DNA of 64,000 nt. It comes from Bradyrhizobium zhengyangense. GTDB taxonomy: Bacteria; Pseudomonadota; Alphaproteobacteria; Rhizobiales; Xanthobacteraceae. The DNA lies in NCBI RefSeq assembly GCF_022012435.1, contig NZ_JAKLUA010000008.1, positions 1 to 64,000 of the forward strand, in the 5' to 3' direction. The number at the start of each line of letters is the position of its first letter. Positions within the stretch are counted from its first letter, which is position 1. A program made the position numbers and the translations under genes. Shown here in pieces: positions 29,090 to 30,080 of the stretch. The notes beneath the pieces were generated by a model that ran no database searches, was not told the DNA's origin, and saw only the letters and a list, made by a program, of their open reading frames with translations.

Positions 29090-29407
29090 CGGGCCTCACA
29101 GCAAGCGTTCCAGAGACCGCAAGCATCCGATCTCGGCGCCAACGCGCCTCTTCTGCCGCGTATTGTTGCTGCCACATCGGGTCATACGGGCTTGATCGGA
29201 CTGGTGAGCGACATGTCTGAACATTAAGCCGGAACACTAAGGCCCGCCTAGACCGCGCCGAGAGAACCCAGCACACACGTCCAAATGGATGCGCCGTGGT
29301 CCCATTTAAAGTGTGATGAGGATCACGGCGATCAGGGACCGGATCGCGTAATCCTGCACTTACAGATTGGGAGGGAATGGTCCCTCCAAGCCCAGCAGGC
29401 AGCGGAC
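29090..29407. other. Non-coding stretch with putative promoter of the peptide pair
   Basis: No convincing gene is seen in these 318 bases. The right part holds a CRP/FNR-type palindrome (29312-29327), a possible -10 element near 29348 (GTAATCCT) and a GGGAGGGA tract at 29370. A minus-strand frame here has no family similarity and was not called. Confidence 0.5.
29312..29327. promoter_or_regulatory. CRP/FNR-family type palindrome upstream of leader peptides
   Basis: TGTGAT-GAGG-ATCACG: GTGAT and ATCAC arms are perfectly inverted and the full site matches 11 of 12 defined positions of the TGTGAT-N4-ATCACA half-site pattern. Its centre is 88 bp before the first peptide ATG. A class II promoter at 41.5 bp would put transcription start near 29361. 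Which regulator binds is not known. Confidence 0.5.
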
Positions 29408-29581
29408 ATGGAAAGAGACCAGACTGAAATCAATGAGTTCGAGCTCACGGCCGAAGAGCTGGATAGCGTCAGCAGTGGGCTTAAGAACAATCAGACCGAA
29501 GCATGGGCCTGGTTCCAACTCGGGATGGCGAAAGGCTTTGCGGAACAAGGCGGCATCGGTTGTTGGACACATTTATCATAA
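29408..29581 (+). CDS. Leader-type small peptide 1 (bacteriocin-like)
   Basis: 57 residues. An acidic leader MERDQTEINEFELTAEELDS runs into VSSG, the position of a double-glycine processing motif, followed by LKNNQTEAWAWFQLGMAKGF and a tail with one Cys (GGIGCWTHLS). The ELTxEELDxVSGG leader resembles those of double-glycine bacteriocins and RiPP precursors. A paralogue with the same NNQTEAW core follows 40 bp downstream. The second Gly of the motif is Ser-Gly here, so cleavage efficiency is uncertain. No C39 peptidase transporter or modifying enzyme lies nearby. Confidence 0.65.
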   Translation: MERDQTEINEFELTAEELDSVSSGLKNNQTEAWAWFQLGMAKGFAEQGGIGCWTHLS

Positions 29582-29621
29582 CGAGGGTCGTTAGGCGGCC
29601 CCACCAACGGAGGAGACGGAG

Positions 29622-29807
29622 ATGGCTAGGCGCAACAACGAAATCAGCGATGCGAGCGAAATCACGCCGCGGGAATTGATGGCTGAGGACTTGGATGCCG
29701 TGAGTGGCGGATATCGGAACAATCAGACGGAAGCCTGGCATGCCTTCACGAGAGGCATAGAAGCAGGACTAATAATGGGCGGCGCAACCGTCGTGTGTAC
29801 ACCGTAG
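29622..29807 (+). CDS. Leader-type small peptide 2 (bacteriocin-like)
   Basis: 61 residues. The ribosome site GGAGGAGACGGAG lies just before the ATG. The leader ends ELMAEDLDAVSGG, a canonical double-glycine-type motif, followed by YRNNQTEAWHAFTRGIEAGL and a Gly-rich tail with one Cys (MGGATVVCTP). Residues around the motif and NNQTEAW are shared with peptide 1, showing a tandem duplication with diverging tails. Predicted product after cleavage is about 31 residues. Function is unknown; it could be an antimicrobial, a signal or a secreted peptide. Confidence 0.72.
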   Translation: MARRNNEISDASEITPRELMAEDLDAVSGGYRNNQTEAWHAFTRGIEAGLIMGGATVVCTP

Positions 29808-30080
29808 TGAGCGCCGGCGGGAGGAACTGACCGCGACCGTCATTCATCATGCCGCCGGCGAATGCATCGAGGTCCTCAACAACAGACACCGCAGGAATAG
29901 CTGCGTGCAAAGGGTCGATCCCGTCAGCGCATCGGCTGCACCGCTATTCTTGGTTACGAGCATCATTCTTGGAGCTTTCGTCGGACACCGAATGAAGGTG
30001 GATTTCGCTTCCACCTTCGCTCTGCGAGCTACAGCGGACAATTTGCTCGACCCATTCTACGCGTCAACGCAAAATCCTCA

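What the first reader, a model, noticed from the sequence alone, without database searches (positions are those of the whole stretch)
29408..29807. Tandem leader-type small peptides sharing an NNQTEAW core
Two adjacent small ORFs (57 and 61 residues) each have an acidic leader ending in ELDSVSSG or DLDAVSGG, followed at once by K/R-NNQTEAW and a variable Gly-rich tail with a single Cys. This is the architecture of double-glycine-processed bacteriocin or RiPP precursors, but no C39 peptidase/ABC exporter or modifying enzyme is adjacent, and the core motif is not one I know as a characterised peptide family. The conserved part straddling the cleavage point with diverging tails suggests a family in which tail diversity matters. 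The neighbouring Asp/Glu racemase is a possible but unproven partner.
Basis: partly seen in the sequence, partly recalled or inferred. Interest (0 to 1): 0.72.

Follow-up and report, generated by a model that had tools for sequence, protein, structure and literature searches.

The report
Co-regulated secreted small-peptide genes
Two neighbouring small genes make peptides that look built for export from the cell, and they belong to a scattered set of very different peptide genes in related bacteria, most of which share one unusual switch and occur with one kind of exporter.

Summary
Both ORFs (29408-29581; 29622-29807) are real genes under selection: a tandem pair of orthologues in G061 (dN/dS 0.30, 0.41) and single copies in G078 and G191. 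An exporter exists elsewhere: contig C26 carries one NHLP-type set with a C39 peptidase ABC transporter, flanked by other Gly-Gly peptide genes. In the genus, 50 of 54 genomes with Gly-Gly leader matches have this exporter, against 17 of 211 others. The unexpected part is regulatory. GTGA-N6-TCAC precedes 59 of 97 non-redundant Gly-Gly genes but 4 of 233 control genes, lies 41.5 bases before a start predicted from a fixed -10 element, and in 37 of 116 is followed by a hairpin motif whose stem covaries. The window has all three. Best reading: exported, probably unmodified glycine-zipper, bacteriocin-like peptides, switched on by a CRP/Clr-type regulator and exported in trans. Peptide function, regulator and hairpin role are not shown. 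The racemase has no support as partner.

The parts
29313..29326 (+). CRP-type box GTGA-N6-TCAC (GTGATGAGGATCAC), centre at 29319.5
   Evidence: position, letters; genus-wide enrichment
29349..29354 (+). predicted -10 element TAATCC; predicted transcription start about 29361, which puts the box centre at -41.5
   Evidence: position-fixed T/A peak at +36/+37 from the box in 73 non-redundant sites; letters
29370..29387 (+). hairpin near the predicted 5' end, GGAGGGA-AUGG-UCCCUCC
   Evidence: fold; motif; covariation
29408..29581 (+). peptide gene 1 (P0001, 57 aa), leader ends VSSG, core with NNQTEAW and GMAKG (GxxxG)
29622..29807 (+). peptide gene 2 (P0002, 61 aa), leader ends VSGG, core with NNQTEAW and GIEAG (GxxxG); starts 40 bases after gene 1, no box of its own
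29746..29910 (-). probable relic of a third Gly-Gly peptide gene of another family (VEDLDAFAGGMMNDGRGQF), convergent with gene 2
   Evidence: compare VEDLDAVRGGMMNDGRGQ of L185

Best explanation
The two ORFs form a small operon of double-glycine precursor peptides. Shown: they are real genes, share a leader type with many other scattered small genes of the genus, and stand behind a promoter module shared with most of those genes. Inferred: a CRP/Clr-type regulator bound at -41.5 activates transcription (class II geometry). The mRNA begins with, or close to, a short hairpin with an AUGG loop. The NHLP-type C39 exporter encoded elsewhere (C26) removes the leader and exports the peptides. The mature 31-33 residue peptides are unmodified glycine-zipper, membrane-seeking peptides that act on competing bacteria, like class IIb or Cdz bacteriocins.
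For: Family and selection. Leaders: a leader profile finds matches (E up to 0.001) in 54 of 265 genus genomes; in the own genome it gives 9 matches at E up to 10, 5 of them below 0.001. Boxes of the GTGA-N6-TCAC type stand before the window pair, both C26 peptide pairs and the weaker candidate on C57. Exporter: of the four C39-type transporters only the one on C26 has the Cys motif (QMEAAECGAAC) in its C39 domain; it scores 1039.5 bits to NHLM_micro_ABC1 (cut-off 853.3), with partners TIGR03797 and TIGR03794 over their cut-offs. Co-occurrence 50 of 54 against 17 of 211 (Fisher p 2e-34, kinship not corrected). In the two genomes with an NNQTEAW-type remnant and no exporter over the cut-off (G203, G227) that gene is broken, by a frame change and by a stop in the leader. 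Promoter: 59 of 97 against 4 of 233 control genes, dinucleotide shuffles mean 0.46 of 97 (maximum 2 in 50), six other spacers 0-2 of 97; first of 3328 dyads tried; -10 peak at a fixed place. Hairpin: 80.6 % of cells paired against 69.0 % shuffled and 34 doubly changed cells against 13.5 (0 of 500 each). Composite box-plus-hairpin pattern: 49 places in 27 of 265 genomes, reversed control 0. GxxxG is kept in the five aligned members and in G191.
Against: No export, cleavage or activity is shown. P0001 has Ser where double-glycine leaders nearly always have Gly (position -2; recalled), which may impair cleavage. No immunity gene was recognised beside the pair, and G078 and G191 have one peptide, not two. 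17 genomes have the exporter without a leader match, and G227, without the exporter, has another Gly-Gly gene that looks intact and has a box (L157). The C26 exporter genes have no box of their own: in L014 the only two lie before peptide genes. Of 35 distinct composite matches read, 10 are not followed by a Gly-Gly ORF and one is unclear; several of the 24 positive ones are near-copies. The weight matrix, trained on these same sequences, misses 22 of 97 at 10 or 12 bits. The hairpin motif was found in 42 of 116 only; one covariation measure is weak (5 pairs with double changes against 3.8, 39 of 500 shuffles), and the window's own copy folds only modestly better than shuffles (z -1.34, 19 of 200 as good).
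Confidence: 0.6

Rival explanations
1. The peptides are secreted signals (pheromone-like or host-directed) rather than antibacterial; exporter and promoter are the same.
For: Many different cores share one promoter, which suits a response programme as well as warfare; double-glycine peptides serve in communication and in competition elsewhere (start of the abstract of PMC7018657 in the listing). No immunity gene seen by eye.
Against: No receptor or sensor kinase was noticed beside the genes; the cores carry GxxxG zippers, which I recall as more usual in membrane-active bacteriocins.
Confidence: 0.22
2. The peptides are precursors of a modified natural product (RiPP), for example cross-linked at WAW as in darobactin, by enzymes elsewhere in the genome.
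For: P0001 gives a weak hit to the darobactin precursor model (17.1 bits, E 0.0042); WAW is also in the first G061 peptide.
Against: Below the curated cut-off of 45 bits; WxW is absent from P0002, G078, G191 and the second G061 peptide; no modifying enzyme recognised beside peptides or exporter (by eye; 79, 80). The rest of the genome was not searched for such enzymes.
Confidence: 0.08
3. The box and hairpin belong to a wider CRP-type regulon in which Gly-Gly peptides are one set of targets; the peptides may be decaying in this strain.
For: Box-only sites occur elsewhere in the genome (39 places, control 7); 10 of 35 composite matches precede no Gly-Gly ORF, five of them two groups of other small ORFs; P0001 has SG for GG; a third peptide gene nearby looks like a relic.
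Against: dN/dS 0.30 and 0.41 for the pair. In the own genome, in 29 of the 39 box places that were read, a strong hairpin score stands only before the two C26 peptide pairs (20.1 and 22.6 bits; next 8.5), and the exact composite occurs once, at the window pair.
Confidence: 0.1

Closest known systems
NHLP / Nif11-type microcin systems (Haft 2010, PMC2887384, passages)
   Same: Same exporter trio TIGR03794, TIGR03796, TIGR03797; precursors may lie away from the exporter genes; Gly-Gly cleavage motif
   Different: Leaders here are 24 and 30 residues, where the paper gives average motif positions of 83 and 70; no modification enzyme recognised; a shared CRP-type promoter or hairpin is not in the passages seen
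Double-glycine precursors of Gram-negative bacteria (Dirix 2004 as cited in PMC3140520, passages)
   Same: Leaders fit most of the quoted consensus M(R/K)ELX3E(I/L)X2(I/V)XG(G/A); diverse small cores
   Different: P0001 has Ser for the first Gly and P0002 Asp for the Glu; the NNQTEAW core is not in the passages seen
Cdz glycine-zipper bacteriocins of Caulobacter (PMC5380434, passages)
   Same: Leader ending in G[G/A/S], glycine zippers, two-protein set, type I exporter, no obvious modification enzymes
   Different: No linked exporter or recognised immunity gene here; the paper's length range is 60-151 residues, P0001 has 57
Class IIb two-peptide bacteriocins (recalled)
   Same: Two adjacent peptides with double-glycine-type leaders and a GxxxG each
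   Different: Singletons in G078 and G191; no immunity gene seen
Clr of Sinorhizobium meliloti (PMC10127613, passages)
   Same: Its core site GTNNCNNNNGNNAC has the same 14-base length and covers the GTGAC-N4-GTCAC form of the box; two CRP-family proteins of the genome resemble Clr (7PZA): 98.9 bits for C23 (its best hit) and 113.2 bits for C6 (whose best hit is 3D0S, 146.5 bits)
   Different: Many boxes, the window's among them (GTGAT...ATCAC), do not fit that core strictly and are nearer the E. coli CRP site; binding not tested

Membership tests
Double-glycine leader peptide exported by a C39 ABC transporter | Leader with the ELxxxELxxVxGG pattern | tested here: met
   profile A2: E 1.0e-7 (P0002) and 1.6e-7 (P0001) in the own genome; both leaders were among the 23 rows of A2, so this is partly by construction; P0001 has SG
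Double-glycine leader peptide exported by a C39 ABC transporter | C39 transporter with the Cys motif in the same genome | tested here: met
Double-glycine leader peptide exported by a C39 ABC transporter | Cleavage after GG and export | not testable with these tools
   needs peptidomics
NHLP / N11P precursor | Long nitrile-hydratase-like or Nif11-like leader | tested here: not met
   no such model among the listed hits at E up to 10; leaders are 24 and 30 residues
Class IIb two-peptide bacteriocin | Two adjacent peptides with GG leaders and GxxxG | tested here: met
   with SG in P0001; G078 and G191 have one peptide
Class IIb two-peptide bacteriocin | Linked immunity gene | tested here: inconclusive
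   none recognised by eye
Class IIb two-peptide bacteriocin | Antibacterial activity needing both peptides | not testable with these tools
   bench
Bacteriocin class II models in Pfam/NCBIfam | Score over the curated cut-off | tested here: not met
   P0002: PF10439 13.7 of 27.1 bits; NF038167 12.7 of 32 bits
Cdz-like system | Exporter linked to the peptide genes | tested here: not met
   exporter is on another contig
Darobactin-type RiPP | Precursor model cut-off | tested here: not met
   17.1 of 45 bits
FixK/FnrN target | Site TTGANCNNGATCAANG (PMC4999443, passage) | tested here: not met
   the sites found have GTGA, not TTGA
Clr target | Core GTNNCNNNNGNNAC (PMC10127613, passage) | tested here: inconclusive
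   fits boxes of the GTGAC-N4-GTCAC form; the window box differs at two of the specified bases
Rfam RNA family | Score over gathering cut-off | tested here: not met
   window 29200-29900: only Acido-1 at 20.8 of 50 bits, not listed in 16 related loci

The most novel reading that the evidence does not exclude
In this genus, dozens of unrelated, scattered secreted peptides form one cyclic-nucleotide-controlled arsenal. A Clr/CRP-type regulator at -41.5 switches them on together, a shared AUGG hairpin at the 5' end gives a second, post-transcriptional handle on many of them, and a stand-alone cyclic-nucleotide-binding protein found beside four of the eight exporter sets read gates their release. 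NNQTEAW is one of the cores.
Probability: 0.25. Interest if true: 0.8.

Novelty: new variant of a known kind. Interest (0 to 1): 0.62.

Why it matters
Orphan double-glycine peptides are hard to connect with an exporter, a regulator or a condition. A shared promoter with a recognisable box, a fixed -10 distance and a covarying hairpin gives a way to find them without a gene cluster, to ask when they are made, and to test the exporter in trans. If the hairpin is a common RNA handle, it would be a new way to co-regulate diversified secreted peptides.

Tried and rejected
Racemase partner: no racemase seen beside relatives (by eye on printed ORF starts). Darobactin-type RiPP: below cut-off. Named relatives in genome contigs: two scans, none confirmed (the tool says records near the window's genome may be left out), so no call names the host genus; 'Bradyrhizobium', used in my paper searches, is my inference from genome size and kind. 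The stand-alone cyclic-nucleotide-binding protein beside exporter sets was first taken for the regulator and dropped because the one scanned (L162) has no DNA-binding domain. The first box pattern was too loose. Regulator identity stayed open: of 32 matches to HTH_Crp_2 in the own genome I looked at 21 loci; two have an R-E-S-x-N-[KR] helix, at C6:14060-14275 and C23:43094-43288. Boxes near CRP-family genes: four chance-like sites in 30 loci. Acido-1 RNA: one weak match in the window, none listed in 16 related loci. Outside the genus: the leader profile matched 7 of 397 order-level genomes, 3 of them of other genera, and no good box stood before the four places looked at there. PADLOC: no relevant hit. 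Literature: ten searches answered, some with capped lists (5 of 11, 10 of 37, 8 of 25 and 8 of 25 shown); no listed title or abstract start was about this promoter, hairpin or core. Papers seen as passages only: PMC4222275, PMC5380434, PMC4842269, PMC5082802, PMC3140520, PMC4999443, PMC10127613, PMC2887384. PMC7018657: abstract start in a listing.

Full report
Observation. The two ORFs are present as described. DNA that spells NNQTEAW occurs twice in the 8.8 Mb genome, both times here. With P0002 as query, 3 of 149 genomes (own included; 57 genera) had a match at E up to 0.01, all in the own genus. A five-row profile matched 34 of 265 genus genomes at E up to 0.1, 7 of them (own included) at E below 1e-6: G000, G061, G078, G191, G203, G227, G304. 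The gene is intact and close in G061 (tandem pair), G078 and G191; broken in G203 and G227; distant in G304. The G061 pair lies between different neighbours. Synonymous changes per site exceed the others: 0.51 against 0.22 for gene 1 and 0.43 against 0.22 for gene 2, dN/dS 0.30 and 0.41. The genes are short and these are two pairs only, so the ratios are rough; more distant pairs are mostly saturated.

Anatomy. P0001 has a 24-residue leader ending VSSG and a 33-residue core; P0002 a 30-residue leader ending VSGG and a 31-residue core. After the cut point all six members carry [RK]N, N or C, Q or E, T, then a Trp region and a GxxxG. Twelve columns are invariant over the five sequences, among them both Gly of GxxxG and a C-terminal Cys; G191, not in that alignment, lacks the Cys. 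The SG in P0001 is a departure from the Gly-Gly rule; its G061 orthologue has GG.

Exporter. The Peptidase_C39 model finds four proteins in the genome. Only the one on contig C26 has the ECGAAC motif; the others have no Cys there. It is an NHLM_micro_ABC1 protein over the curated cut-off, followed by NHLM_micro_ABC2 and preceded by NHLM_micro_HlyD. Four Gly-Gly peptide genes flank it, two on each side. In the genus, 54 of 265 genomes have a leader-profile match at E up to 0.001 and 67 of 265 an exporter over the cut-off. 50 genomes have both; four have leader matches only (G203, G227, G240, G302), 17 the exporter only. G240 and G302 are incomplete assemblies with partial exporter matches. In G203 the start and the body of the NNQTEAW-type gene lie in different frames, in G227 a TAG stands in the leader. 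Two cases are few, G227 has another Gly-Gly gene that looks intact and has a box (L157), and the association is not corrected for kinship.

Promoter. I collected the ORFs of 25-200 residues, in the loci then held, that matched the leader profile with at least 13 bits (237), grouped those with enough upstream sequence into 116 non-redundant clusters, and used the 97 with at least 18 bits. Thirty of the loci then held had been fetched with a box-like pattern, but none of the 97 representatives comes from them (listing). Among 256 tetramers times 13 spacers, GTGA-N6-TCAC came first with 59 of 97; those next in rank (23, 15, 12, 10) are shifted readings of it, the first unrelated one has 9. Upstream stretches of 233 other predicted genes from the loci gave 4, dinucleotide shuffles of the 97 a mean of 0.46 (maximum 2 in 50), six other spacers 0 to 2. 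Second genes of an operon, such as P0002, count as misses. A weight matrix trained on the same windows finds 75 of 97 at 10 or 12 bits, and 5 or 4 of 233 controls. Aligned on the box, 73 sites show T 66 % and A 86 % at +36 and +37. If these are the first bases of a -10 hexamer, the start lies 12 bases further and the box centre at -41.5, the place of an activator that overlaps the -35 region (class II, recalled). In the window the box is 29313-29326, the -10 element TAATCC 29349-29354, the start about 29361. In the own genome such boxes stand before the window pair, both C26 pairs and the weak candidate on C57.

Hairpin. A second element, GGRATGGTCC with flanking complementary bases, was found by the motif model in 42 of 116 clusters, in 37 of them together with the box, and in 35 of those 37 at 50-60 bases from it. 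Taken as RNA it is a stem with an AUGG loop. On 31 chosen sequences 80.6 % of cells pair, against 69.0 % after shuffling, with 34 doubly changed cells against 13.5; slid versions reach at most 65.9 %; the number of pairs with a double change, 5 against 3.8, was reached by 39 of 500 shuffles. All 40 sequences give 78 %, slid versions at most 64 %. G-U pairs are frequent, which speaks for RNA rather than a DNA dyad. The window's copy folds as 29370-29387, though not much better than shuffles.

The other way round. The composite pattern, searched without regard to peptides, gave 49 places in 27 of 265 genomes and none for the reversed pattern. Of 35 distinct matches that could be read, 24 are followed by a Gly-Gly ORF (20 found by the script, 4 added by eye, among them the window's own), one is unclear (L187) and 10 are not. 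Several of the 24 are near-copies from related genomes. Five of the ten form two groups of other small ORFs. So the module is strongly tied to these peptides but not exclusive. In the own genome box-only sites are spread (39 places, control 7); in the 29 of them that were read, strong hairpin scores stand only before the C26 peptide pairs, the window's own site not being among the 29.

Regulator. The box is not the FixK/FnrN site (TTGA; PMC4999443, passage). Its GTGAC-N4-GTCAC form fits the core of the Clr site GTNNCNNNNGNNAC (PMC10127613, passage); the window's box differs from that core at two bases and is nearer the E. coli CRP site. Of 21 CRP-family loci looked at (of 32 matches) two proteins have an R-E-S-x-N-[KR] helix. 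The one on C23 has Clr (7PZA) as best solved relative, 98.9 bits; the one on C6 has 3D0S as best (146.5 bits) and Clr at 113.2 bits. Neither was tested. A cyclic-nucleotide-binding protein lies beside the exporter set in four of the eight exporter loci read (L052, L055, L162, L180; not seen in L014, the window's genome, L149, L161, L174); the L162 one was scanned and has no DNA-binding domain.

Judgement. Most likely these are exported, unmodified, membrane-active peptides of bacteriocin type under a CRP-type switch. Shown: genes, selection, leader, exporter co-occurrence, shared promoter box, fixed -10 distance, covarying hairpin. Inferred: binding, activation, export in trans, antibacterial action. 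No title or abstract start listed by ten searches (some lists capped) was about the NNQTEAW core or the promoter-hairpin module; the library lacks most subscription papers.

Noticed in passing
29746-29910 (minus strand): Probable remnant of a Gly-Gly peptide gene of another family (MMNDGRGQ type), convergent with P0002; longer relatives in L185 and L196.
   Followed up: partly
L052 and L055 (G002, G321): Tandem arrays of near-identical 70-residue Gly-Gly peptides, mostly 239 bases apart, beside the exporter set.
   Followed up: no
L188, L205, L213; L192, L204: Two groups of small ORFs without Gly-Gly leader behind the same box and hairpin pattern.
   Followed up: no
L162 10432-10944, L180 1264-1776, L052 19080-19685, L055 2317-2949: Stand-alone cyclic-nucleotide-binding protein beside the exporter set; the L162 one has a weak hit to 'bacteriocin-type transport-associated protein' (33 bits, cut-off 161).
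   Followed up: partly
L028, L033, L053, L157, L162: Another recurring core after the leader, MK(W/T/A)...V(I/V)DARGG..., in several genomes.
   Followed up: no
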